From Oscillospiraceae bacterium (GTDB taxonomy: Bacteria; Bacillota; Clostridia; Oscillospirales; Oscillospiraceae), in the NCBI GenBank assembly GCA_017448455.1, contig JAFSLL010000175.1:1-55990 (forward strand): a DNA stretch of 55,990 nucleotides, written 5' to 3'. The notes below the pieces were generated by a model. That model was given only the letters and a program-made list of their open reading frames with translations, ran no database searches and was not told the DNA's origin. The position numbers and the translations under genes were made by a program. Positions 8,666 to 35,274 of this stretch are shown here, in pieces; within the stretch, counting starts at the first letter, position 1; the number at the start of each line of letters is the position of its first letter.

Positions 8666-8716
8666 CAAAAAAGAATCAGGGGCTGTCTCATTGAGACAGC
8701 CCCTCTATTCTTTTTT
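8666..8716. terminator. Bidirectional intrinsic terminator
   Basis: GGGGCTGTCTCA / TGAGACAGCCCC (8679-8690 with 8692-8703) is flanked by A-run 8666-8672 and T-run 8711-8716, so it works on both strands. It separates the convergent GH30 gene and the LysM gene, whose stop codon is seven bases beyond. Confidence 0.92.
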
Positions 8717-8722
8717 GTGCGA

Positions 8723-8998
8723 TTAGCGATAGATACGGGGATAGATAACGATCTGGGAACCGGCGTAGATCAGGTTGATGTCCTTGATGGTGTTGGGGTT
8801 CCAGTTCTTGATCTCCTGGGTGGTTACGCCAAAGCGGATGGCAATGCCGGAAAGAGCATCGCCCGGTGCGATGGTGTAGGTGATGAAGTTGCCGGTCTGG
8901 ACATAGGTGCCCTTCGCGAACTGCCACCAGGGGCCGTAGCCGCCCTGTGCGTCTTCTACCATTTCATCGGTAATCGGGGTTTTCACTTCGTCTGCCAT
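8723..8998 (-). CDS. Double-glycine-leader protein with LysM domain
   Basis: A 91-residue product. ATG 8998 is chosen for its GGAGG at proper distance; the frame opens further upstream without an SD. Residues 1-20 are an acidic leader ending in EMVEDAQGG, a double-glycine processing site. The cargo (71 residues) starts YGPWWQF and contains a LysM domain at about 40-86 (YTIAPGDALSGIAIRFGVT, IYAGSQIVIYP), a fold that binds N-acetylglucosamine-containing glycans such as peptidoglycan. No Sec signal is present. It is the distal gene of the minus-strand run with a C39-peptidase exporter, so export with leader removal is likely (inferred). No catalytic domain is attached. Confidence 0.8.
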   Translation of the reverse strand: MADEVKTPITDEMVEDAQGGYGPWWQFAKGTYVQTGNFITYTIAPGDALSGIAIRFGVTTQEIKNWNPNTIKDINLIYAGSQIVIYPRIYR

Positions 8999-9130
8999 TT
9001 TTTGTTCCTCCATTTTTTTATATTCACAAAAGATCGCCTTAGTCTGGAGATTTCCCGACAAAAGCGGATCTCTTTATGCCGGCAATCTTGTTGTGTTCCA
9101 TTTTGGGGCTTCCCTTGGAAGCAGGTGGTT

Positions 9131-9421
9131 TCAGCGTTCTTTTTTGTCCTGGATCAGGCGTCGAAACAGGGTTACAAACCAGGAGTATGGGTTAACATCC
9201 AGGGCAGCCGGTTCGAAGCCGCCGGCGACACTTGCCAGCGCGTCATCGGGGAGTGCTTCCAGCGGTACCGGGGTCTCGTCCAGCTCATAGCCCTGTGCTT
9301 CGGCAAGGCGGTTCATTTCTGCCAGGGCTGTCTCCGCATCGGGACAGCTCCGAAGCTGCTGGCGGAGATCGTCATTCTGTTCAAGCAGTTCCGCGAATTC
9401 TTTCAGGCGGATCTTCTCCAT
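9131..9421 (-). CDS. Nif11-like leader peptide precursor
   Basis: A 96-residue precursor. Residues 1-68 form a helical, acidic leader of Nif11/nitrile-hydratase-leader character (FAELLEQNDDLRQQLRS, then EAQGYELDETP) ending LPDDALASVAGG. The 28-residue core after GG is aromatic and cationic (NPYSWFVTLFRRLIQDKKER) and could form an amphipathic helix, as in bacteriocins. There are no Cys, Ser or Thr arrays typical of lanthipeptides, and no modifying enzyme nearby, so the core may be exported unmodified. It follows the sigma factor by 25 bases and precedes the LysM gene. The SD is weak (AAGGAA about 16 bases upstream). Confidence 0.75.
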   Translation of the reverse strand: MEKIRLKEFAELLEQNDDLRQQLRSCPDAETALAEMNRLAEAQGYELDETPVPLEALPDDALASVAGGFEPAALDVNPYSWFVTLFRRLIQDKKER

Positions 9422-9446
9422 AGCTGCGGCTCGCTTTCCTTGCTCA

Positions 9447-9926
9447 TCAGGCCTCCAGCAGAACGCGCAGCTTCTTCAGCAGAGCCTGGTGTCTGCGTTT
9501 GGTCACGCTGTAGGGGAGATGCATTTTATCTGAAATCTCATGCAGAGAGTTGTTAGCGTAGTAATGCAGGACCAGAATGTCCCGATCCTGTTCGGGAAGC
9601 TGTTTCAGCACGCCGGCGAGCCGCTCCAGCATATCGCTGTTGACAAGAGACTCTTCCAGGCTTCCCTGTGCGGGCATATCTTCGGTGAGAGGGGCACTGA
9701 TCCGGTGTGTCCGGTAATAATCAACGACGGTGTTATGCGTGATCGTATAGATGTAGGAGGATACGCCGGACCCGTTTTGCGGGTTCAGATTTTCCAAAAC
9801 TTTCCGAAATACCTCGCTGCACAGGTCCTCGACATCCTCGGGGTTCCCCACACGGCTTCGGATATAGTCGCGAACCTTATACCGGTATTCGCGGTAGATC
9901 TCATCAAACCGTTCCGTATCCGTCAT
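9447..9926 (-). CDS. ECF-type RNA polymerase sigma factor
   Basis: A 159-residue sigma-70 family factor with region 2 (YREYRYKVRDYIRSRVGNPEDVEDLCSEVF block, about 10-41) and region 4 (LPEQDRDILVLHYY, then SLHEISDKMHLPYSVTKRRHQALLKKL helix-turn-helix, about 111-155); no region 3. ATG 9926 overlaps the stop of the small GG-motif ORF upstream (ATGA), so it is translationally coupled to it. No recognisable anti-sigma gene is adjacent; the 65-residue upstream product could have that role, but nothing in its sequence shows it. A candidate target promoter lies at 11570-11600 before the CW_7 gene. Confidence 0.9.
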   Translation of the reverse strand: MTDTERFDEIYREYRYKVRDYIRSRVGNPEDVEDLCSEVFRKVLENLNPQNGSGVSSYIYTITHNTVVDYYRTHRISAPLTEDMPAQGSLEESLVNSDMLERLAGVLKQLPEQDRDILVLHYYANNSLHEISDKMHLPYSVTKRRHQALLKKLRVLLEA

Positions 9927-10120
9927 GGCTGGGGCTCCCGTGTCTCGTCTGGCATCTCCCTGCTGACCCCGCCGGCGGCGAGCGCGACTTGGTCATCGGA
10001 GAGGATGAACAGCTCTTTTTGGGCGTACCGATCCAACACTTCGTCAATCACAGACTGAAGGGCTGTGTTCTGATCAAAGCGCTGATAATCAAAAAGTGTT
10101 CTTAGCGTTGTTTCCAGCAC
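9923..10120 (-). CDS. Small ORF with double-glycine motif
   Basis: A 65-residue product from GTG 10120, with GGAGGAG ten bases upstream. It overlaps the metallopeptidase-like gene by 19 bases and the sigma factor by four, so all three are translationally coupled. The N-terminal 35 residues look helical (TLFDYQRFDQNTALQSVIDEV). The sequence FILSDDQVALAAGG then matches the leader consensus of the other small genes here, followed by only 14 hydrophilic residues (VSREMPDETREPQP). It may be a minimal export substrate, a peptide signal, or a regulator of the adjacent sigma factor; I cannot tell which. Confidence 0.7.
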   Translation of the reverse strand: MLETTLRTLFDYQRFDQNTALQSVIDEVLDRYAQKELFILSDDQVALAAGGVSREMPDETREPQP

Positions 10121-11004
10121 CCGATCTCCTCCTCAAGACGGATTGCCAGTTCGTAAGGCTCGACAGGACCCCAGGCTGAGAAAAGCTCCTCAAAGTGGCA
10201 CAGCGTCTTGTGGACTTTGGCCGCAAGTTCGTTCAGACGCTCCTGCCGATCGTTGGTTCCATCCAGGTAGTTTTCCAGTCTGCCGCCGACATACCGTTCC
10301 CCGTCAATACCGAGGAAGCGTTCTGCGAGCTGCCGGTCGAAAGTTCCGAACGCGGCGGTGAGGCCCGCGGCATCGGCTACCAGTTCATCCCAGACAGCGT
10401 CCTTCTTTTCCGGGAAGAACCTGCGGCAGATAAAGTGTGTGCATTCGTGCGTTTTGCGGATTGCATGCGAGGCTTTCAGCCACTCCTGCGGAGACAGCCC
10501 GACCTCTTCCGCTGGGACCGCGCTGTATGGCCCTGCTGAGAGGATGACCAGCGCATCCCGGTAGTTGCTTCTGACCGCCGTGAAGCGTTCAAATTCATCG
10601 CTCCAGGCATCCGGATCTCCGCCCGTACGGAGGTATTCCTCTTTGTGGGCTCGGATCTTTGTCCAGTTGATCACGCCGTCCAGCATGGAGGCGCCCTGCG
10701 TTGGCGGGATAGCGTCCGGCATGCAGCGGTGCGCTATGATCTGGAGGAAGAGCTCGAAGTCCGCACGCTCCTGCAGCGTGATGACCGGAACCGTTCCTGC
10801 CGGGGTTCCCTCGTACACACAGGAGTCCCCGTCATGACCGAGGAAGTGCGCGAGGGAGTGGGTCGGGGCATCCTGACCGCGCTGGACGATGGCTTTGTAA
10901 TCCTCCGCGCTCTCCGGACCCGGCCGCAGATAGAGCTGCGGATAGATCTTTGCCAGCGCTGGCAGTACTTCTCTGCCTGAGAGGTTTCGTTCTTCGGCTG
11001 TCAT
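10102..11004 (-). CDS. HECTH-motif metallopeptidase-like protein
   Basis: A 300-residue protein without signal peptide or membrane segments. Residues 186-190 are HECTH, a zincin-type HExxH site, and the third ligand is plausibly Glu207 in WDELVADAAG, about 17 residues further. The rest is not a family I recognise by name. It sits between the CW_7 export substrate and the sigma/leader genes, in one operon by overlap with the next gene. A role in processing or degrading the exported proteins or leaders is inference from position only; it could also be a structural zincin relative. AAGGGCGG lies upstream of ATG 11004. Confidence 0.6.
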   Translation of the reverse strand: MTAEERNLSGREVLPALAKIYPQLYLRPGPESAEDYKAIVQRGQDAPTHSLAHFLGHDGDSCVYEGTPAGTVPVITLQERADFELFLQIIAHRCMPDAIPPTQGASMLDGVINWTKIRAHKEEYLRTGGDPDAWSDEFERFTAVRSNYRDALVILSAGPYSAVPAEEVGLSPQEWLKASHAIRKTHECTHFICRRFFPEKKDAVWDELVADAAGLTAAFGTFDRQLAERFLGIDGERYVGGRLENYLDGTNDRQERLNELAAKVHKTLCHFEELFSAWGPVEPYELAIRLEEEIGCWKQR

Positions 11005-11034
11005 CGGTGCCCGCCCTTCGTGTTTCGCTCTTTA

Positions 11035-11080
11035 ACGGAACCCCTCCGGATAATCCCGGATGGGAGAGGAGGGGTCCCGT
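11035..11080 (-). other. mRNA hairpin between CW_7 gene and metallopeptidase gene
   Basis: A 13-bp stem (11068-11080 with 11035-11047, one G-U pair) occupies the 104-base gap after the CW_7 gene. There is no U-run after it on the minus strand. It may protect the upstream CW_7 message from 3' decay or partly end transcription, so that the cargo gene is expressed more than the downstream genes. Confidence 0.55.
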
Positions 11081-11108
11081 GGAGGACTTGCTTAGCAGCA
11101 GTCGGGGA

Positions 11109-11438
11109 TCAATCCAGGACCATATGGTTGACCAGGTTCTGGACAACCTCGGCAGGATAGCCGGCTGCGCGGAGTCTTGCCATGCGGATGTCGCCGTTGC
11201 CGTACTTGCCGGCGATTACATCCTGGGCAACATTCTCGTACTTCAGAACCGCGTTTACAAGGCCCTGTACCACATCGGGATCATAACCGGCATTCGCGAG
11301 CGCCCATCTGCGATCCTGTCCGTTGCCGTAGTCACCGCGGATGCAGGCATAGGCAGCTCTCAGGTCACGGGTCATGCCGCCGGAGACGGCTTCGAGATCG
11401 GCATCTGCAAGCTGGTCGAGTTTCTTTTCTTCGCTCAT
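11109..11438 (-). CDS. Double-glycine-leader protein with two CW_7 repeats
   Basis: A 109-residue product. ATG 11438 has AAAGGAG at good spacing; an upstream in-frame ATG at 11468 lacks one and overlaps a promoter. Residues 1-21 form a leader ending LADADLEAVSGG. The cargo is two repeats: 27-66 (IRGDYGNGQDRR, ANAGYDPDVVQGLVN) and 68-107 (VAQDVIAGKYGNGDIRM, RAAGYPAEVVQNLVN). The G-x-YGNG...R...L..AGY...VQ..VN pattern is that of the CW_7 (Cpl-7) cell-wall-binding repeat, known from phage lysozymes, where it binds muropeptides. No hydrolase domain is attached. It lies next to the C39/ABC exporter, so it is probably a leader-dependent secreted wall-binding protein. Confidence 0.82.
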   Translation of the reverse strand: MSEEKKLDQLADADLEAVSGGMTRDLRAAYACIRGDYGNGQDRRWALANAGYDPDVVQGLVNAVLKYENVAQDVIAGKYGNGDIRMARLRAAGYPAEVVQNLVNHMVLD

Positions 11439-11456
11439 GATTCTGAACTCCTTTAT

Positions 11457-11486
11457 ATTATATTTCATTTACCCATTGTTCTGCAA
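11457..11486 (-). promoter_or_regulatory. Possible sigma-A promoter of the CW_7 gene
   Basis: Minus-strand TTGCAG (11481-11486) and TATAAT (11457-11462) with an 18-base spacer. The start would lie about 15 bases before the SD, giving a very short leader. It may act alongside the ECF-like site at 11570-11600. Confidence 0.5.
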
Positions 11487-11569
11487 GTGTTTTCTTGCAA
11501 AATCCGGAGCGGGAAGCTCTGCGGTGAGAACTGCGCGGTGATTTTTGCCGTGTTTTTTGTTCTCTGTCT

Positions 11570-11600
11570 CTTTATACGAACGATTTTGCGGGCGGGACAC
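11570..11600 (-). promoter_or_regulatory. Candidate ECF-sigma promoter
   Basis: Minus-strand GTGTCCCG (11593-11600), a 14-base spacer, then CGTATAAAG (11570-11578). A GTCC-type -35 with a CGT-type -10 is the general pattern of ECF promoters. It lies in the 180-base gap between the exporter gene and the CW_7 gene, upstream of the operon that includes the ECF factor itself, so autoregulation is plausible. One site only; assignment is inference. Confidence 0.45.
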
Positions 11601-11618
11601 TTTTTTTCAAAAAATTTT

Positions 11619-13820
11619 TTATTCCGCGTCTTTCGCGGTGTCGGTGTCCAGCCGCTGCCGCGCCACCAGTTCCGCGAAGAAGCCGTTTTTGGCGATCAGG
11701 TCTTCATACTTGCCGTCCTCAATGATGTGGCCCTTGTCGAGCACGAGGATTCGGTCACAGTTCCGGATGGTGGACAGGCGGTGCGCGATGACAATGCGTG
11801 TGCATTTCAGGCTGTCCAGGGCGTCGGACACCTGCTTCTGCGTGCGGTTGTCCAGCGCGGAGGTCGCTTCGTCAAACATCAGGATCTTTGGCTTCGGCGC
11901 GATGGCGCGCGCAATCATCAGTCGCTGCTTCTGACCGCCGGAGATGCCGCCCTGTCCTTCGGAGATAATCGTCTGCATCCCCATGGGCATTGCACGGATA
12001 TCATCCGCAATACCCGCCATTTCAGCGGCCTCCCAGGCTTCGTCCAGGGTCAGTGCCGGTGCAGAAATGACGATGTTCGAATAGATGTCTCCCTGGAAAA
12101 GGCTGCCGTCCTGCGTAACTACGCCGATCTTCCGGCGCAGAGACCGCATGTCAAGCTTGGAAATATCTTTGCCGTCGTAGTAGATCGCGCCTTTGTCCGG
12201 TGTTTCAAAACCGAGAAGAAGCCGTACCAGTGTAGATTTGCCGCAGCCGGTGGTTCCGACAATTGCGATATACTCGCCGGCTTTGATTTTCAGACTCATG
12301 CCGTCCACGACATAGGGCATGCTGTCCGTATAGCGGAAATACACATTCGAGAGCTCAATGCTGCCGCGAATGGAAGTCACCATGGCTTTGCTTTCTGACA
12401 TCTCCGGTTCCGTCTTCAGGAAGGGCTCTGCCATGTCCAGAATCGGCTTGATGCGCGCCACCGAGAGCGCGACGCCGGTAAGGGAGGCAAAGGCGCCGGT
12501 CACCATGCCGTATGCGACATTGAAGGTGATGTATTCGGAAGGGCTGATCCGGGTCTGGACAGCGAGAAAGTATAGCAGAATCGTTCCGGCGAGATTGATC
12601 GCCGTCATGATCGCGGAGTTTGCTTTCAGAAATACGGGCGGGTTATAGTTCAGCTCGGCAGCTTCGGAATATGCCTTTGCCCAACGGGCAAAGGCGCGCT
12701 TTTCGGCGCCGGCCAGTTTGATTTTCTGTACACCGGTGATGAGAGCATAGCTGATACCGGCTTCCTTGGCGCTTTTTTCCATCATTTCTTTGCTGATTTT
12801 TGTCTGTAGGACGGTGGAGAGAAAGCTGAAGCCGAGCGTGCAGAGGATGATGGCGAGCGCGGGCAGAACCAGCGCCGGTGCGTAATGGAAAATGCGCGGG
12901 AGATACAGCAGAGAGGACAGAGAAGTCAGACCCATAGAGAAGACACTGCCCAGAAGCAGGTCACACAGCAGCCCGACAGACTGGAAGCGGTTGGAGAGTT
13001 CACCGGAGGAATACTTTCGGAAGAAGTTTGCCGGCAGATTCATCATGCGCATCATCATGGCCGCGTCCACGGAAAGGGAAGTCTTGGTCTTGATGCGGTT
13101 CATCATGAGCTCGCGAACCGTGCCGATAAGCTGCGCGGAGATGACGGCACAGAACATGAATACGGCGGTTCCGATGAGAAGCGCGGTGCTGCCGCTGTCC
13201 AGCACATAGCTGGTGAGCACACGGGTGATGTTCAGCATTGGCATGCCCGCCAGCGTCACCAGAAGGGTGAGCGCGATCAGCAGAACAAAGTCGCCGGTGG
13301 AGAGACAGTTTTTCAGATAGAGAAGCAAGTCAGGAATACCCAGTTTCTTCTGCGGGAGCGGGCGATAGAAACAGAGCGCGTCCGACGTGAAGCGTTCTGC
13401 GTTCTGCCGGTTCAGAGAGGTTTTCTGCCCGGTTGCGGGGTCTGTAAACCAGTAGCCTGTAAAGGGCTTGGGGAGAAGGGCAACAGGGGTGTTGTCCGCC
13501 TTGAGATAAGCTAGGATCGGGCCATAGGCGTCTTTATACCAGCCCTTTTCCAGCTTGACATTCCTTCGCATCAGACCGTGCGGACGCAGACAGAATTCCA
13601 GCTGCTCGTCCGGATCGGTAACGCTTTCGGGAATCTCGGGGCTTTTAATATGATAATATTTCAGAATTTCGTCCAGAGCAGCTTTGGTGATGATGCGCTC
13701 ATCCATGATTCCGGTGCCCTGTTTGCCCAACACGACCGAGGCCATGCGTAAGATGGAGTCCTCAAAGATCTCCTGATCGCTCAGCTTGCGCTGACGGATC
13801 TGTTCGTCAAACCAACCCAT
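11619..13820 (-). CDS. NHLM-type export ABC transporter, permease/ATPase
   Basis: The second of two fused permease-ATPase proteins of the NHLM (nitrile-hydratase-leader microcin) export type, 733 residues from ATG 13820 (AAGGGGG seven bases upstream; a GTG two codons earlier is possible). The N-terminal 150 residues are a cytosolic extension without a C39 protease site, as usual for this subunit. The exporter membrane domain (about 165-455) follows, then the ATPase: VGTTGCGKST (Walker A), ISGGQKQRLMIARA (signature), ILMFDEATSALDN (Walker B), VIAHRLSTIRN (H-loop). It lies 12 bases after the C39 transporter gene and probably pairs with it at the membrane. Confidence 0.9.
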   Translation of the reverse strand: MGWFDEQIRQRKLSDQEIFEDSILRMASVVLGKQGTGIMDERIITKAALDEILKYYHIKSPEIPESVTDPDEQLEFCLRPHGLMRRNVKLEKGWYKDAYGPILAYLKADNTPVALLPKPFTGYWFTDPATGQKTSLNRQNAERFTSDALCFYRPLPQKKLGIPDLLLYLKNCLSTGDFVLLIALTLLVTLAGMPMLNITRVLTSYVLDSGSTALLIGTAVFMFCAVISAQLIGTVRELMMNRIKTKTSLSVDAAMMMRMMNLPANFFRKYSSGELSNRFQSVGLLCDLLLGSVFSMGLTSLSSLLYLPRIFHYAPALVLPALAIILCTLGFSFLSTVLQTKISKEMMEKSAKEAGISYALITGVQKIKLAGAEKRAFARWAKAYSEAAELNYNPPVFLKANSAIMTAINLAGTILLYFLAVQTRISPSEYITFNVAYGMVTGAFASLTGVALSVARIKPILDMAEPFLKTEPEMSESKAMVTSIRGSIELSNVYFRYTDSMPYVVDGMSLKIKAGEYIAIVGTTGCGKSTLVRLLLGFETPDKGAIYYDGKDISKLDMRSLRRKIGVVTQDGSLFQGDIYSNIVISAPALTLDEAWEAAEMAGIADDIRAMPMGMQTIISEGQGGISGGQKQRLMIARAIAPKPKILMFDEATSALDNRTQKQVSDALDSLKCTRIVIAHRLSTIRNCDRILVLDKGHIIEDGKYEDLIAKNGFFAELVARQRLDTDTAKDAE

Positions 13821-13832
13821 TACCACACCCCC

Positions 13833-16016
13833 TTAATCGCTGGAGATGAGCTCTGTATAAAAGCCGCCTTTGGCGTAGAGCTCATCGTGCGTGCCGCGTT
13901 CGACCACAACGCCCTTGTCCAGGACGATGATCTCATCGCAGTCGCGGATGGTGGAGAGCCTGTGGGCGATCACAATGCAGGTGATGCCGCGGTCTTTGAC
14001 CGCTTTCACAAGTTCGTACTCGGTCTTGGCATCCAGCGCGGAGGTGGCCTCATCCATAATGATAATGGACGGATCCTGCGCCAGAACACGCGCGATTTCA
14101 ATACGCTGGCGCTGGCCGCCGGAGAGGTCTTTGCCGCCTTCGGTCAGTTTCCCGTAGAAGCCGCCTTCTCTGGCCATGATATCGTCGTAGATCTGGGCAT
14201 CACGGGCAGCGAGGATCATTTCGAAATCCTCTATCGATTCATCCCACATCTTAATGTTGTTGGCAATGGTGTCTTCAAACAGGATAATGTCCTGATCAAC
14301 CACGGCAACCGATCCGGTGAAGACGCTGCGGTCGATGTCCTTGATGGGCTTCCCGTCAAAGAGTATTTCACCGCTCCAAGGCTGATAGAGTCCGGAAATC
14401 AGTTTGCTGAGCGTGGATTTTCCGCAGCCGGATGTGCCGACGAAAGCAACCCGGCTGCCCGGCTTCATGCTCATGGAGAAATCCTGGATCAGCGGTTTTC
14501 CAAGCGGAGAGTAGCCGAACGTGATGTTCTTCAGCTCGACCTGTCCGGAGAGTTTGGAATAATCGGCGTTCTCATCCAGCGGCATGTCGGAAAAGGCGGA
14601 GTCGGAGGGATACTCCATGACGTCGTCGACACGCTCCATCTCGGTGCGCATCTCCTGGATCATCTGGCCGGCGGAGACAAGCGTTGTGGCAGGCGTCATG
14701 AAACAGCTCAGAAATCCCTGGAACAGCATGATCTGGCCGAGAGAGAACCTGCCCTGCATGGTCAGCCAGACACCGATAATCATGACGGTGGAATCCGCCA
14801 GCATGGTCAGAAGATTCGGAATCAGACCGAGATACTGGTTGAGCTTTGCAAATTTGACATTCTGGGCGTTGACGGAAGCCTGGTAGCCCGCCCATTTCTG
14901 AAAGTATCCGTTCTCTGCCCCGCTGGACTTGATGGTCTCCACCATCTGGATTCCCGAAACGGTGGCGGAACTCAGTTTGCCGCTGTCTCGCATCTGCACG
15001 CGGGTGATGTTGACGCGCTTGGCGGAGATGATCTGGGAAACCAGCAGGTTCAGGATGATGGTCACGATGCCTACGATGGTCAGGATCACGCTGTAGCGCA
15101 GCATCACGACCAGGTAGAAGATCATCATGAACGTGTTCAGAAGCAGTGGGGCGAAGGTGTTGACCAGCGTTGACGCGATGGTGGCATTGGTGCCCTGCCG
15201 CATCAGAATATCGCCAGACATGCGCTGTGAGAAGAAGGCCATCGGCATCCGCAGAATCTTCCACATAAAGGTGCTGCTGCCGACCAGAGCCATTTTTCCG
15301 TTGATTTTCAGCGAGTAAACAGACTGCACCCAGGAAATGACCACCTGCGCGATGCCCATGACAGCCATCAGTGTCAGGAAAGGCATCAGCAGCTCGCGGT
15401 TCTCACCGGTGAGCAGACGGTCCATGAAGAAACGGGAGAAGATCGGGTTGATGATCCCGAAGAGGTAGCCGATTACCGAGGAAAGCATTACAAAGATGAC
15501 AGCTGCTCCGGCGCCTGTCAGCCGTTTGCGGGCAAAGGCGATGGTGCTCTTCGGCTTTCCGCCGGGCACAAAGTTCGGCCCCGGAGTAATCTGCAGGGCA
15601 ATGCCGGTAAAGGACTGGCTGAACTCCTCCATCGGAACCTTGACTTCGCCGCGGGCGGGGTCATTCAGATAGGCATAGTCACCCTTGAAGCCATCCAGAA
15701 CGACAAAGTGATTGAAGTTCCAGTGGATGATGCAGGGGTAGGTCATGTCGTTTTTGAGCGCGCCGACTTCGCAGCGGAAACCCTGCGCGTCAAAGCCGTA
15801 ACTCCGCGCCGCGATCAGAACATTCTTGGCGTTGGAACCGTCACGCGAGACACCGCAGTCAAGCCGAACCTGTTCAAGCGGAACCCATTTGTCATAATAA
15901 GCCATTACCATGGCCAGCGAGGCGGCACCGCATTCAAGCGCCTCCATCTGCATGACCACCGGTACCTTGGCTCTGCCGCCGGCGGTAACCGGCGATTTTA
16001 CCGTCTTGTTTCCCAT
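13833..16016 (-). CDS. C39-peptidase ABC transporter (NHLM/PCAT exporter)
   Basis: A 727-residue peptidase-containing ABC transporter that cuts leader peptides after double glycine and exports the cargo. The C39 domain has Gln23, catalytic Cys29 (MEALECGAASLAMV), His103 (HWNFNHFVVLDG) and Asp119 (LNDPARG), so it should be active. The membrane domain covers about 165-450. The ATPase has VGTSGCGKST, DLSGGQRQRIEIARV and IIIMDEATSALD. The gene is between the HlyD-like and second ABC genes, spaced by 11 and 12 bases. Candidate substrates are the GG-leader proteins encoded just downstream (CW_7, Nif11-like, LysM and the 65-residue ORF). No modifying enzyme is linked. Confidence 0.94.
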   Translation of the reverse strand: MGNKTVKSPVTAGGRAKVPVVMQMEALECGAASLAMVMAYYDKWVPLEQVRLDCGVSRDGSNAKNVLIAARSYGFDAQGFRCEVGALKNDMTYPCIIHWNFNHFVVLDGFKGDYAYLNDPARGEVKVPMEEFSQSFTGIALQITPGPNFVPGGKPKSTIAFARKRLTGAGAAVIFVMLSSVIGYLFGIINPIFSRFFMDRLLTGENRELLMPFLTLMAVMGIAQVVISWVQSVYSLKINGKMALVGSSTFMWKILRMPMAFFSQRMSGDILMRQGTNATIASTLVNTFAPLLLNTFMMIFYLVVMLRYSVILTIVGIVTIILNLLVSQIISAKRVNITRVQMRDSGKLSSATVSGIQMVETIKSSGAENGYFQKWAGYQASVNAQNVKFAKLNQYLGLIPNLLTMLADSTVMIIGVWLTMQGRFSLGQIMLFQGFLSCFMTPATTLVSAGQMIQEMRTEMERVDDVMEYPSDSAFSDMPLDENADYSKLSGQVELKNITFGYSPLGKPLIQDFSMSMKPGSRVAFVGTSGCGKSTLSKLISGLYQPWSGEILFDGKPIKDIDRSVFTGSVAVVDQDIILFEDTIANNIKMWDESIEDFEMILAARDAQIYDDIMAREGGFYGKLTEGGKDLSGGQRQRIEIARVLAQDPSIIIMDEATSALDAKTEYELVKAVKDRGITCIVIAHRLSTIRDCDEIIVLDKGVVVERGTHDELYAKGGFYTELISSD

Positions 16017-16027
16017 TCGACAGACCC

Positions 16028-16447
16028 TCAGTTAAACAAAAGGCTCAAAACCTGAGTCTGGCGAAACACGACACGGGCAGGATAACTGCCGTCGGCAAGG
16101 TTTGTAGCCGCTATGGCAAAGAGACTGCCGTCCTCTGCGCGGCCTACGCTGCTGATAACGGAAGAGGTTTCCCCAACGGTGATCGTCATGCCGGATTTCA
16201 CGCTTTCCGCTTTCTGAGCATCGTCAAAAACCAGTTTCATCTCGCCGTTCTGAACCTGAGCGGTTCCGGCGGCGAAGCTGTCAATTTGCGCTGTGGCACT
16301 CCAGATCAGCATCCCGACGAGCAGCAGAATGATGGCGGCAAGCACAACCCAGACCGAGGGATTGGTCACGCGCAGATAATCGTTGAGCTGCTCAGGAGAC
16401 TGAATGCGCTCCATGCTTTCTTTGCGGAACAGGCTTGATTCTTCCAT
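16028..16447 (-). CDS. Short HlyD-like NHLM secretion protein
   Basis: A 139-residue membrane adaptor. ATG 16447 is chosen for AGAGGAG upstream; a further 15 codons open upstream without support. It starts with the characteristic FRKESMERIQSPEQLNDYLRVTNPSVW segment, then one membrane helix (VVLAAIILLLVGMLIW, about 33-50) and a beta-rich extracytoplasmic part. The long coiled coil of classical HlyD is missing, which is usual for Firmicute versions since there is no outer membrane. It is first in the exporter operon, 11 bases before the C39 transporter, behind a sigma-A promoter at 16552-16579. Confidence 0.85.
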   Translation of the reverse strand: MEESSLFRKESMERIQSPEQLNDYLRVTNPSVWVVLAAIILLLVGMLIWSATAQIDSFAAGTAQVQNGEMKLVFDDAQKAESVKSGMTITVGETSSVISSVGRAEDGSLFAIAATNLADGSYPARVVFRQTQVLSLLFN

Positions 16448-16551
16448 TTCGGTTTCTCCTCTCAGGTCAGATTCGCAGGCAGGTTTTCCCAAACAAGTGA
16501 ATCAGAATTATCATTAACGGGTATCGTTTTTTCTGTAAAAAAGCTCATGTT

Positions 16552-16579
16552 ATTATACCATATCATCGCCAGAATTCAA
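16552..16579 (-). promoter_or_regulatory. Sigma-A promoter of the exporter operon
   Basis: Minus-strand TTGAAT (16574-16579), 16-base spacer, TATAAT (16552-16557). The start near 16545 leaves a leader of about 100 bases before the HlyD-like gene. The 180 bases between this promoter and the next terminator hold nothing I recognise. Confidence 0.7.
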
Positions 16580-18789: not shown

Positions 18790-18903
18790 ACAAGGTGAAC
18801 GTTCTTGCGGAACCGGATATTTTTCTATCTGACCCGGTTCACACTACAATTAATCATTGGACTTTTGTAATCCATTTCTTTACACATGAAAGGGGAAACG
18901 ATC

Positions 18904-19203
18904 ATGCTGAACATCATCAAGAACGCGGAAGACAGCGCGCTTCAGGTCACGCTGGAAGGCCGCCTGGATACGACGACGGCGCCTCAGCTGGAAAGCCAGC
19001 TCATGGGGTCGCTGAATGGCGTAACCAATCTGAATATGGATTTTGAAAAGCTGGAGTATATTTCTTCTGCCGGTCTGCGTGTACTGCTCGCCGCTCAGAA
19101 AGTGATGAACAAGCAGGGCCAGATGACGATTACGCATGTGAACGATGTCATCATGGAGATTTTTGAGGTTACCGGCTTTACTGATATTTTAACCATTCAG
19201 TAA
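18904..19203 (+). CDS. STAS-domain anti-sigma-factor antagonist-like protein
   Basis: A 99-residue STAS protein of the SpoIIAA/RsbV type, the switch that is phosphorylated by an RsbW-like kinase and dephosphorylated by a SpoIIE/RsbU phosphatase. The phosphosite region is EYISSAGLRVLL; by alignment with SpoIIAA (DSSG) the accepting residue is Ser55. ATG 18904 has AAGGGGA upstream; an ATG six codons earlier is less well placed. Its stop is 15 bases before the phosphatase-kinase gene, so both partner enzymes are encoded next to it. No sigma factor gene is in the run, so the downstream target is unknown. Confidence 0.92.
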   Translation: MLNIIKNAEDSALQVTLEGRLDTTTAPQLESQLMGSLNGVTNLNMDFEKLEYISSAGLRVLLAAQKVMNKQGQMTITHVNDVIMEIFEVTGFTDILTIQ

Positions 19204-19218
19204 GCGGGAGGACGCCCC

Positions 19219-21369
19219 ATGGCGGAAAAAAGTGTACGGGAGATGACGGAGCGGGAGAGACGACGCTTCTCTCTCTCAGCAAAAGTGTTCCGCGCAACTC
19301 TGATGGGGTCTCTTGTTCTCGGGCTGGTGGCAATTGTCATTGGACTCGGCCTCTATCTTTACGCGCTTGTCGGTCAGTATGTAGGGGAGGCCTTCGGCCT
19401 TTCCCGGAGTACGTCTATTGTTGTAGCGCAGGTTGTCGATACCGAGCCTCTGGCAGATGAGGTTATGCGGATCTACCGCAGCCTGACTCCTGAAGAGCTG
19501 GCGATGACCGGTACGCCGGATTACCGCGAAAAGTTTGCGCATGTGACAGAAACACCGGAATACCGGCGGCTGAACAGCATTCTTCGCGAATTCGGCAGTT
19601 CCAGTGAAGTACAGGATGTCTACTTTGCGGTTTATGATCAGGCCACCTCCGCGATTGTCTATGTCTGCGATCCGGAGGATCAGGAGGATCTGATCTGCGC
19701 TCCCAGCGACTGGGAGCCGCTCGAACCGCGGGAACTGAACAAGTTCCTGAACTGGGACGGAACAGGCCAGCTGTATGATATCGGAAATACAGAGAAATAC
19801 GGACTTGTCTGTACAGCCGGTGTTCCGCTGAGAAATACCGCGGGAGAGCTTCTGGGATTTATACTGGCGGATATCACGCTGGGCAATATCGCGGACGGGC
19901 TTGAGACATTTGCGGTTCCTTATATCCTGATTCTGGCGATTGTTGTGGATTGCCTCGGCCTAGCATTGACGAAGCATATGCGCAAAACATTGGTCAAACC
20001 GATCAACGACATTGCGGAAGCAGCGCAGGACTATGTCAACGACAAACGGGAAGGCGTTCCGACAGCGGATCATTTTGCCATGCTGAATATTCGCAGCGGG
20101 GATGAGATTGAGAATCTGAGCCTCGTGATGGCAGATATGGAACGCGGGCTCTCCGAATATGAAGATCATCTTGCTGCCATTACCTCAGAGAAAGAGCGCC
20201 TGAATACAGAGCTCTATCTTGCCAACCGGATTCAGGCGGAGATGCTGCCGAACATATTCCCGCCGTTTCCGGACCGAGAAGAGTTTGATATTTATGCTGC
20301 CATGAATCCGGCCAAGGAAGTCGGCGGCGATTTTTATGATTTCTTCCTGATTGATGACAATCATCTCGGCCTCGTGATAGCGGATATTTCCGGCAAGGGG
20401 ATTCCGGCGGCACTCTTCATGATGGCAGCGAAGATTCTGGTAAAAACCCATATCATGACGGGACTGAGCCCGCATGAGGTGCTGGAAAAGCTGAACGAAC
20501 AGATTTGCGCCAACAACAGGGAAGAGATGTTCATCACGCTGTGGCTGGGAGTCCTGGATCTGTCCACCGGGCGTCTGACGGCTTCCAATGCTGGGCATGA
20601 ATATCCAATCCTGAAGAAGCCGGGAGGCAGCTTTGAAGTAATCAAAGATCAGCACGGCTTTGTGGTTGGCGGGATGGAAGAGATGCGTTACCGGGATTAT
20701 GAGCTTCAGCTGGAGCCCGGGTCGAAGCTTTTTCTCTATACGGACGGTCTGCCGGAGGCAGCAAACGCAGGCGATGAGCTTTTCGGTCTTGAGAGAACGC
20801 TGCACGCGCTGAACGCGGTTTCTGATGAAAAACCGAAGGCAATCCTCGAGAAAACCAAGGAAGATGTGGACCGCTTTACCGGGACAGCTCCACAATTTGA
20901 CGACCTGACTATGATGTGTCTGCAGTACAGTGGTTACACGGCAGAGGAGGGACCCCAGATGAAGAGACTGGAAGTAGAAGCAATACAAACGAATCTTGAA
21001 AAAGTTACCGATTTTATCAATGCTGAGCTGGAGGCGCTTGATTGCCCGCTGAAAACCCAGACACAGATTGATGTTGCCGTTGACGAACTTTTCAGTAATA
21101 TTGTGCACTATGCCTATGTTCCGAACACCGGCATGGCAACGATCTTCTTTGATACCGAGGACGATCAGAATACGGTGGTAATCAGTTTTCTCGATCAGGG
21201 CATACCCTTTAACCCGGTGGAGAATAAAGACCCGGATGTCACATTAAACGCGACAGACCGGCCAATCGGAGGATTGGGGATTTTCCTGGTCAAGAAAACG
21301 ATGGATTCCGTCTGTTATGAGCGTCGGGAAGGACAGAATTTTACGCAGATCAGAAAGCGGATCAGATAA
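19219..21369 (+). CDS. Membrane SpoIIE phosphatase fused to RsbW-like kinase
   Basis: A 716-residue fusion holding both opposing enzymes of a partner switch. Layout: helix 29-52, extracytoplasmic sensor about 53-232, helix 233-251, HAMP 252-313, short coiled coil, SpoIIE/PP2C domain 350-569 (EVGGDFYDFF, IADISGKGIPAALF, FDDLTMM metal-binding motifs), then a GHKL ATPase 585-714 (N-box DVAVDELFSNIVHY, G1 FLDQGIPFNP, G2 GGLGIFLVKK). The phosphatase would dephosphorylate and the ATPase phosphorylate STAS proteins; both STAS genes lie next to it. GGAGG precedes ATG 19219. The sensor part suggests control by an external signal. Confidence 0.92.
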   Translation: MAEKSVREMTERERRRFSLSAKVFRATLMGSLVLGLVAIVIGLGLYLYALVGQYVGEAFGLSRSTSIVVAQVVDTEPLADEVMRIYRSLTPEELAMTGTPDYREKFAHVTETPEYRRLNSILREFGSSSEVQDVYFAVYDQATSAIVYVCDPEDQEDLICAPSDWEPLEPRELNKFLNWDGTGQLYDIGNTEKYGLVCTAGVPLRNTAGELLGFILADITLGNIADGLETFAVPYILILAIVVDCLGLALTKHMRKTLVKPINDIAEAAQDYVNDKREGVPTADHFAMLNIRSGDEIENLSLVMADMERGLSEYEDHLAAITSEKERLNTELYLANRIQAEMLPNIFPPFPDREEFDIYAAMNPAKEVGGDFYDFFLIDDNHLGLVIADISGKGIPAALFMMAAKILVKTHIMTGLSPHEVLEKLNEQICANNREEMFITLWLGVLDLSTGRLTASNAGHEYPILKKPGGSFEVIKDQHGFVVGGMEEMRYRDYELQLEPGSKLFLYTDGLPEAANAGDELFGLERTLHALNAVSDEKPKAILEKTKEDVDRFTGTAPQFDDLTMMCLQYSGYTAEEGPQMKRLEVEAIQTNLEKVTDFINAELEALDCPLKTQTQIDVAVDELFSNIVHYAYVPNTGMATIFFDTEDDQNTVVISFLDQGIPFNPVENKDPDVTLNATDRPIGGLGIFLVKKTMDSVCYERREGQNFTQIRKRIR

Positions 21370-35161: not shown

Positions 35162-35180
35162 ACGGACACACCTCTTGTGG

Positions 35181-35274
35181 CAGCGGATGCGGACAAGCAC
35201 CGCGTACAAAACTGTACTTCGTCCGGCGGCGACCTCCCATCCGCCGGCACTTGACGCGCTTGTCCTACTCTGAC
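35181..35274 (-). promoter_or_regulatory. THF-I riboswitch aptamer
   Basis: The minus strand matches the tetrahydrofolate riboswitch: GAGTAG, then an 8-bp helix GGACAAGC / GCTTGTCC, GCGTCAAGTG, a hairpin CCGGCGG / CCGCCGG enclosing ATGGGAGGTCG, then ACGAAGTAC, GCGGTG and the closing GCATCCGCTG. These conserved blocks occur in the right order and spacing. THF riboswitches are known before folT, folC and fchA-type genes in Firmicutes, exactly the genes downstream. Confidence 0.94.

What the first reader, a model, noticed from the sequence alone, without database searches (positions are those of the whole stretch)
8723..16579. Leader-peptide export system whose cargo is cell-wall-binding modules
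A complete NHLM exporter (HlyD-like, C39-peptidase ABC, second ABC) sits with four small genes that each carry an L-x-D-D/A-x-L/V...A/S/Q-GG leader end. Two of the cargos are not bacteriocin cores but peptidoglycan-binding domains: two CW_7 repeats (11109-11438) and a LysM domain (8723-8998), both without Sec signals or enzyme domains. No RiPP-modifying enzyme is present, while an ECF sigma factor and an HECTH metallopeptidase-like protein are. Known: C39 domains cut GG leaders; CW_7 and LysM bind muropeptides or glycans. Inference: the cell places small wall-binding proteins outside by leader-dependent export, perhaps as wall decorations, hydrolase inhibitors, or targeting parts for a toxic peptide (the 28-residue Nif11-like core). 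I know of no described system of this kind.
Basis: partly seen in the sequence, partly recalled or inferred. Interest (0 to 1): 0.85.

Follow-up and report, generated by a model that had tools for sequence, protein, structure and literature searches.

The report
Exported wall-binding proteins using bacteriocin leaders
A group of gut bacteria, many of them from ruminants, carries small proteins that are each a bare cell-wall-binding module behind a bacteriocin-type leader, along with the machine that cuts such leaders, so a toxin-export route probably serves to place wall proteins outside the cell.

Summary
The window has an NHLM exporter (C39-ABC and second ABC over their NCBIfam cut-offs) followed by CW_7x2, SP65, Nif11 and LysM genes, each with a Gly-Gly leader end; its HlyD-like protein is short and far below its model's cut-off. 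In 61 exporter loci read, 35 of 36 CW_7 frames and 54 of 57 LysM frames carry the leader; 38 of the 61 hold such a cargo, 23 none in the stretch read. In 91 same-genus genomes, cargo-type matches go with the exporter (52 both, 4 cargo only, 5 exporter only, 30 neither). Two genomes have eight dispersed leader-LysM genes each, and a genome of a second genus has the locus. The C39 domain is 75% identical to LahT150, whose tested leader positions (-12, -7, -4) fit. Mature domains are under purifying selection. Best reading: leader-dependent export of small wall-binding proteins that stay on the wall; cleavage, export and binding are inferred. Nearest precedent: MAM of Faecalibacterium. New variant of a known kind, interest 0.72.

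The parts
16028..16492 (-). short HlyD-like membrane protein (154 aa from TTG; homologues suggest the ATG near 16447)
   Evidence: TIGR03794 28.3 bits, positions 1-53 of 421 only; its sequence cluster is present in 55 of 61 exporter loci, median 141 aa
13833..16016 (-). NHLM ABC1: C39 peptidase + permease + ATPase
   Evidence: TIGR03796 926.6 bits, PF03412; C39 domain identical to LahT150 (PDB 6mpz) at 104 of 139 aligned residues; the only C39 match in the own genome, which is 92% complete
11619..13826 (-). NHLM ABC2: permease + ATPase without peptidase
   Evidence: TIGR03797 722.5 bits
11109..11438 (-). cargo: 21-aa GG leader + two CW_7 repeats, 88-aa mature part
   Evidence: PF08230 95.9 bits; leader -12 L, -7 L, -4 V; PDB sequence match 5i8l, 4cvd
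11020..11108 (-). strong RNA hairpin between the CW_7 gene and DUF7005
   Evidence: -38.3 kcal/mol, z -5.0
10102..11004 (-). DUF7005 protein with HECTH motif, putative metallopeptidase
   Evidence: PF22541 188 bits; H186, E187, H190, E207, D211 invariant in 7 of 7 aligned
9923..10120 (-). SP65: 65-aa protein, conserved part before GG, 14-residue tail; overlaps the ECF start
   Evidence: sequence; an ECF with a GG-ended small protein also in distant NHLM loci L345, L346, L349
9447..9926 (-). ECF sigma factor
   Evidence: TIGR02937 87.7 bits, cut-off 42.9
9131..9421 (-). cargo: Nif11-type leader, GG, 28-residue core
   Evidence: PF07862 over cut-off
8723..8998 (-). cargo: 20-aa leader ending QGG + LysM domain, 71-aa mature part
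   Evidence: PF01476 43.5 bits; family alignment A2
8678..8704 (-). terminator-like hairpin (matched on both strands) right after the LysM gene
   Evidence: 12-pair stem with T tail; fold z -8.6

Best explanation
An NHLM/PCAT exporter of the bacteriocin and RiPP kind exports small proteins made of a bare peptidoglycan-binding module. The C39 domain recognises the last 12-13 leader residues (hydrophobic at -12, -7 and -4, then GG), cuts after GG, and the ABC unit moves the mature domain (about 45-105 residues) out unfolded. Outside it folds and binds muropeptides (CW_7) or glycan (LysM). Most likely it stays on the producer's own wall as a coat, spacer or hydrolase-site blocker. Shown here: gene anatomy, leader conservation, co-occurrence with the exporter, conserved binding residues, purifying selection. 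Inferred: cleavage, export, wall binding and the self-wall role.
For: Leader: 35 of 36 CW_7 and 54 of 57 LysM frames in 61 exporter loci; positions -12/-7/-4 fit in 32 of 32 CW_7 and 48 of 55 LysM rows (rows preselected by a loose motif and by length). Enzyme: 75% identity to LahT150, for which the last 13 leader residues suffice and -12, -7, -4 matter (PMC6363468 section 8). Co-occurrence: 52/4/5/30 in 91 genomes, Fisher 1e-14 (genomes are related, so not independent events); of the 4 exceptions one is a 301-aa lysozyme-like frame, the other three hold leader proteins in MAGs of 65, 80 and 93% completeness. Binding: the Arg and Gln implicated in GMDP binding in Cpl-7 (PMC5705596, passages) are kept in 59 of 59 motif-matched repeats. 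Self-wall role: pooled dN/dS of the mature part 0.19 (CW_7, 22 pairs) and 0.25 (LysM, 58 pairs) against 0.40 in the leader; eight dispersed leader-LysM genes in each of two genomes; a DUF218 protein cluster in 26 of 61 loci (one member scanned). A genome of a second genus has HlyD-like, ABC1, ABC2 and GG-CW_7, GG-LysM and GG-beta cargos together. Precedent: MAM.
Against: No cleavage, export or binding has been measured. 23 of 61 exporter loci have neither cargo in the stretch read, several of them long stretches, so linkage is loose. Five genomes have the exporter without CW_7 or LysM match, and some loci carry quite different GG cargos (zinc-ribbon-like, amphipathic): the exporter is not dedicated to wall proteins. 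The window's LysM leader has V-7 and A-4, weaker than the family. The short HlyD-like partner leaves the route past the membrane undefined. The dN/dS pairs were chosen at 72% identity or more and are not independent. Own or foreign wall is not decided by sequence.
Confidence: 0.65

Rival explanations
1. Wall-targeted antagonism: the exported modules bind the walls of competitors and inhibit growth or carry toxic partners there, as non-enzymatic bacteriocins.
For: The exporter family and leaders are those of bacteriocins; mature parts are mostly cationic (median pI 8.8 and 9.5); a Nif11-like core with an amphipathic look is in the same operon.
Against: Mature domains are more conserved than leaders, the reverse of an arms race; no small immunity-like partner stood out beside the scattered LysM copies (only gene lengths inspected); CW_7 and LysM ligands are also expected in the producer's wall (recalled).
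Confidence: 0.17
2. Muropeptide or glycan scavenging or cloaking: the proteins cover or soak up wall fragments so that host lysozyme, phage endolysins or immune sensors meet fewer free sites, like fungal LysM effectors (recalled comparison).
For: LysM-only and CW_7-only proteins without enzyme domain; CW_7 of Cpl-7 binds GMDP (PMC5705596, passages); PDB sequence hits of the window LysM include the fungal effector Ecp6, 4b8v (weak, E 2e-4).
Against: No test of ligand preference; overlaps with the wall-coat reading.
Confidence: 0.13
3. The GG stretch is not a processing site: the proteins stay inside or leave by another route.
For: No mass spectrometry; the window's LysM leader is weak; 23 of 61 exporter loci lack these cargos in the stretch read.
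Against: Leader motif far above the control, co-occurrence with the exporter, no hydrophobic Sec-like stretch (highest 15-residue mean hydropathy near the N-terminus: median 0.6, maximum 1.7).
Confidence: 0.05

Closest known systems
MAM of Faecalibacterium (PMC12184118, outline and passages; PMC8836110, passages)
   Same: GG-leader protein beside a PCAT, reported as the most abundant envelope protein; proposed surface lattice
   Different: MAM is reported to have no known domain and has its own leader motif; here the cargos are recognised wall-binding modules (CW_7, LysM), in several paralogues, with an NHLM two-ABC exporter
LahT/PCAT of Lachnospiraceae C6A11 (PMC6363468, passages and section 8)
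   Same: C39 domain 75% identical; same leader positions matter
   Different: its substrates there are Nif11-type RiPP precursors, not wall-binding domains
NHLP/Nif11 RiPP export clusters (PMC2887384, passages)
   Same: TIGR03796/TIGR03797 exporter; Nif11-type leader in one cargo
   Different: no RiPP-modifying enzyme among the ten proteins scanned; CW_7 and LysM cargos are folded domains behind short leaders
CW_7 and LysM endolysins (Cpl-7; PMC5705596, passages)
   Same: same binding modules; CW_7 binding residues kept
   Different: no catalytic domain, leader instead; about 65-115 aa instead of several hundred
Fungal LysM effectors (recalled; only PDB hit 4b8v seen)
   Same: secreted LysM without enzyme
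   Different: eukaryotic, Sec-dependent, aimed at chitin (recalled)

Membership tests
NHLM exporter (PCAT type) | C39-ABC protein over TIGR03796 cut-off | tested here: met
   926.6 bits against 853.3
NHLM exporter (PCAT type) | second ABC over TIGR03797 cut-off | tested here: met
   722.5 against 709.4
NHLM exporter (PCAT type) | HlyD-like protein over TIGR03794 cut-off | tested here: not met
   28.3 against 156.2; N-terminal 53 of 421 positions only
NHLM exporter (PCAT type) | catalytic Cys, His, Asp of C39 (motifs recalled) | tested here: met
   aligned with 6mpz in the window; strict motif in 51 of 61 loci, 7 more by eye, 3 not found by the pattern and not looked at further
Nif11/NHLP RiPP cluster | precursor over TIGR03798 cut-off | tested here: not met
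   26.6 against 32.3; Pfam Nif11 is met
Nif11/NHLP RiPP cluster | modification enzyme in the cluster | tested here: not met
   none among the 10 proteins scanned between 8723 and 17309; rest of window not scanned
MAM | leader MMMPANx(8,11)VxGG (motif from PMC12184118) | tested here: not met
   window leaders read directly
MAM | envelope localisation | not testable with these tools
   needs proteomics
Class II bacteriocin | GG leader plus C39 transporter | tested here: met
Class II bacteriocin | adjacent immunity gene | tested here: inconclusive
   no small partner stood out beside dispersed copies (gene lengths only); not searched by family
Class II bacteriocin | antimicrobial activity | not testable with these tools
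   needs an assay
CW_7 wall-binding repeat | PF08230 over cut-off and GMDP-contact Arg/Gln | tested here: met
   95.9 bits against 25; R43, Q58, R85, Q100 invariant in 15 of 15 aligned
Endolysin/autolysin | catalytic domain | tested here: not met
   only CW_7 or LysM over cut-off in the two window cargos

The most novel reading that the evidence does not exclude
A toxin- and RiPP-export machine has become a general secretion route for surface proteins: a lineage of gut bacteria took wall-binding modules of the endolysin kind, put a minimal GG leader before each, multiplied them over the genome, and exports them through a C39 transporter to build or cloak its wall. In part of the loci the regulator is read by the same machine: SP65, a small protein with a GG end paired with an ECF sigma factor, would be an anti-sigma that the transporter cuts or exports, as FlgM is exported by the flagellum (recalled analogy).
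Probability: 0.25. Interest if true: 0.88.

Novelty: new variant of a known kind. Interest (0 to 1): 0.72.

Why it matters
C39/PCAT exporters are normally read as marks of bacteriocins, pheromones and RiPPs. If this holds, genome miners should stop calling every such locus a bacteriocin cluster, and a Sec-independent route for small surface proteins becomes testable with a leader grammar already known from LahT150. It would also explain wall-binding modules with neither enzyme nor signal peptide, and together with MAM it suggests that several gut Clostridia build surface layers this way. CW_7 modules bind GMDP in Cpl-7, so the proteins may also affect how hosts, lysozyme and phages see these bacteria.

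Tried and rejected
Chance GG: rejected by the control counts. Phage or plasmid source of the leader form: the best 80 of 396 related viral loci (85 CW_7 frames, + strand only) hold none with the strict motif in the first 60 residues; the LysM protein matched 3 phage records and the CW_7 protein 3 plasmid records, none over the leader (each protein was sent to one collection only). PADLOC defence families: no hit for six proteins. DUF7005: no relative among PDB sequences, so 'metallopeptidase' rests on the HECTH pattern alone. The beta cargo: no credible PDB relative. SP65 and its look-alikes as a known anti-sigma: no Pfam or NCBIfam support. Fold prediction for DUF7005 and the beta cargo could not be run. 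Genus name: not obtained. Papers: nine searches (two of them returned none, the others capped lists of 10-20) showed no title or abstract start that describes CW_7 or LysM cargos behind GG leaders; the library is open-licence PMC only.

Full report
OBSERVATION. The - strand of window 16492-8723 reads, in order of transcription: short HlyD-like protein, NHLM ABC1 with C39 peptidase, NHLM ABC2, a two-CW_7 protein, a DUF7005 protein with HECTH, a 65-residue protein (SP65) overlapping an ECF sigma factor, a Nif11-leader peptide, and a LysM protein. A terminator-like hairpin follows the LysM gene and another strong hairpin lies between the CW_7 gene and DUF7005 (z -5.0). Four small genes (CW_7, SP65, Nif11, LysM) carry a Gly-Gly at the end of their leader-like part. 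The two ABC genes pass their curated cut-offs; the HlyD-like one does not (28.3 against 156.2 bits). ABC1 holds the only C39 match in the own genome, which is 92% complete.

IS IT MORE THAN CHANCE. I read 60 further loci around ABC1 matches in related genomes plus the window. L068 and L124 lie outside the genus, and two genomes give two loci each (L069 and L122; L111 and L125). Several stretches are short because the contig ends. Profile searches found 36 CW_7 frames, 35 with a leader (the other is cut by the contig end), and 57 LysM frames, 54 with a leader; of the other three, one is contig-cut at the GG itself, one has a hydrophobic N-terminus like a Sec signal, one is cut by the edge of the stretch read. 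With a stricter motif the counts are 35 of 36 and 48 of 57, against 28 of 2519 other short frames and 1 of 803 long frames; 27 of those 28 look by eye like leader peptides of other cargo families. Of the 61 loci, 38 hold a leader CW_7 or LysM gene and 23 do not, within the stretch read; the 23 include loci of genomes such as G084 and G073, whose leader-LysM genes lie on other contigs.

CO-OCCURRENCE. In 91 genomes of the genus, 50 have CW_7 matches (in G020 and G072 these are in long frames), 49 have LysM matches to the leader-LysM profile at E 1e-8 (mostly short frames, in G070 the only one is in a 426-aa frame) and 57 have ABC1 over the cut-off. Either cargo-type match and ABC1: 52 both, 4 cargo only, 5 ABC1 only, 30 neither; Fisher p 1e-14. 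The genomes are related, so this p is not that of independent events. Of the four exceptions, one (G072) is a 301-aa lysozyme-like frame without leader; the other three carry leader proteins and are MAGs of 65, 80 and 93% completeness.

HOW WIDE. A scan of genome contigs gave 79 loci. In loci L126-L167, 45 of 48 CW_7 frames and 44 of 44 LysM frames have the leader by the pattern; of the other three CW_7 frames one is contig-cut, one has the leader behind a spurious extension, one looks frameshifted. In L168-L204, 5 of 37 CW_7 frames have it, all five short proteins of the same kind; of the other 32, one is a contig-cut frame beside leader-LysM genes (L184) and 31 are other frames of 107 to 735 aa, mostly lysozyme- or amidase-like by eye. 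Of 398 genomes of the phylum, 7 have CW_7 matches and only the own one covers the leader. For LysM, 340 of 398 have some match, but among the listed rows only the own one covers the whole precursor; that list was cut. Of 170 genomes of the family (106 genera), the leader forms appear in the genus and in one genome of another genus, G623, whose locus has HlyD-like (65%), ABC1 (82%), ABC2 (78%) and GG-CW_7, GG-LysM and GG-beta cargos. Record titles name MAGs of Clostridia, several from goat, sheep or yak gut ('RUG' as rumen genomes is recalled). The genus name was not obtained.

COPIES. Genomes G084 and G073 each hold eight leader-LysM genes in dispersed places; all 16 that I looked at have GG. 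Several LysM types exist, some with the domain starting right after GG. A further cargo, a ~125-residue beta-rich protein, resembles at about 30% identity a part of large lipoprotein-like proteins (about 700-830 aa; one frame 938 with a likely spurious start) encoded next to CW_7 genes in six named loci.

MECHANISM. The window's C39 domain is identical to LahT150 (PDB 6mpz) at 104 of 139 aligned residues. For LahT150 the last 13 leader residues suffice, and changes at -12, -7 and -4 impair cleavage while -3, -5 and -8 are tolerant (PMC6363468, section 8). The CW_7 leaders fit these three positions in 32 of 32 rows and the LysM leaders in 48 of 55 (rows were preselected by a loose motif and a length of 60 or more; one of the 55 is the contig-cut L076 frame, misplaced by the pattern). 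In the window CW_7 and Nif11 fit well, LysM and SP65 less well. No Sec-like stretch is present. In Cpl-7 each CW_7 repeat is reported to bind GMDP, with Arg271 and Gln286 supported by mutants (PMC5705596, passages); both are kept in 59 of 59 motif-matched repeats. So cut, export and wall binding are all expected, none measured.

ROLE. Four things favour a role on the producer's own wall. Mature domains are under purifying selection (pooled dN/dS 0.19 and 0.25 against 0.40 in the leader; 22 and 58 pairs chosen at 72% identity or more, not independent). Paralogues are many and dispersed, and no immunity-like partner stood out (neighbours seen as gene lengths only). A DUF218 protein cluster is in 26 of 61 loci (one member scanned; the link of DUF218 to envelope synthesis is recalled). 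MAM is a precedent for a GG-leader envelope protein (PMC12184118, outline and passages). Antagonism and muropeptide cloaking remain open.

AGAINST MY READING. Linkage is loose: 23 of 61 exporter loci lack both cargos in the stretch read. Five exporter-bearing genomes lack both kinds of match. Some loci carry zinc-ribbon-like or amphipathic cargos instead, so the exporter itself is general. The window's LysM leader is weak. The HlyD-like protein is too short for the known model. No structure could be predicted.

NOVELTY. The parts are known. What I could not find described, within the searches named, is their combination into a multi-copy family of wall-binding modules exported by leader. MAM is the nearest, so I call it a new variant of a known kind. 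On rechecking, I lowered the main confidence from 0.66 to 0.65 and raised the 'not a processing site' rival from 0.04 to 0.05 because of the loose linkage.

Noticed in passing
window 9447-10120; L345, L346, L349: An ECF sigma factor is paired with a small protein whose conserved-looking part lies before a GG and whose short tail varies. The pair recurs in NHLM loci of other families of the phylum, with DUF7005 detected near it in L345 and L349. It could be an anti-sigma that the C39 transporter cuts.
   Followed up: partly
window 10102-11004: DUF7005 (PF22541) accompanies NHLM loci with very different cargos and has invariant HECTH and WDExxAD in 7 of 7 aligned members; 6 of 398 phylum genomes have it, own included. 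Possibly a second leader or cargo peptidase.
   Followed up: partly
L166:3534-3971, L153:10050-10478 (-), L157:10799-11227 (-): GG-leader beta-rich cargo resembling part of ~700-830 aa lipoprotein-like proteins encoded beside CW_7 genes.
   Followed up: partly
L119, L123, L125: Another kind of NHLM locus in the same genus with many short GG proteins, a number of them with CxxC zinc-ribbon-like motifs (by eye).
   Followed up: no
window 9131-9421; L076, L079, L085, L091, L092, L104, L112, L116: GG peptides with a shared SWFV-type helix (for example RDSWFV; PYSWFV in the window's Nif11 core), several of them first after ABC2.
   Followed up: no
window 18886-19203 and 19219-21369: A STAS-type protein and a SpoIIE-like protein near the locus; the STAS cluster is in 28 of 61 exporter loci (Pfam run on one member; the SpoIIE label is by eye).
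   Followed up: no
window 11020-11108: Strong hairpin just after the CW_7 gene, not listed as a terminator; could raise CW_7 mRNA over the genes downstream.
   Followed up: no
L146 near 10468: A CW_7 copy that looks frameshifted beside an intact one.
   Followed up: no
window 35179-35274 and 1544-1645: THF and purine riboswitches on the - strand.
   Followed up: no
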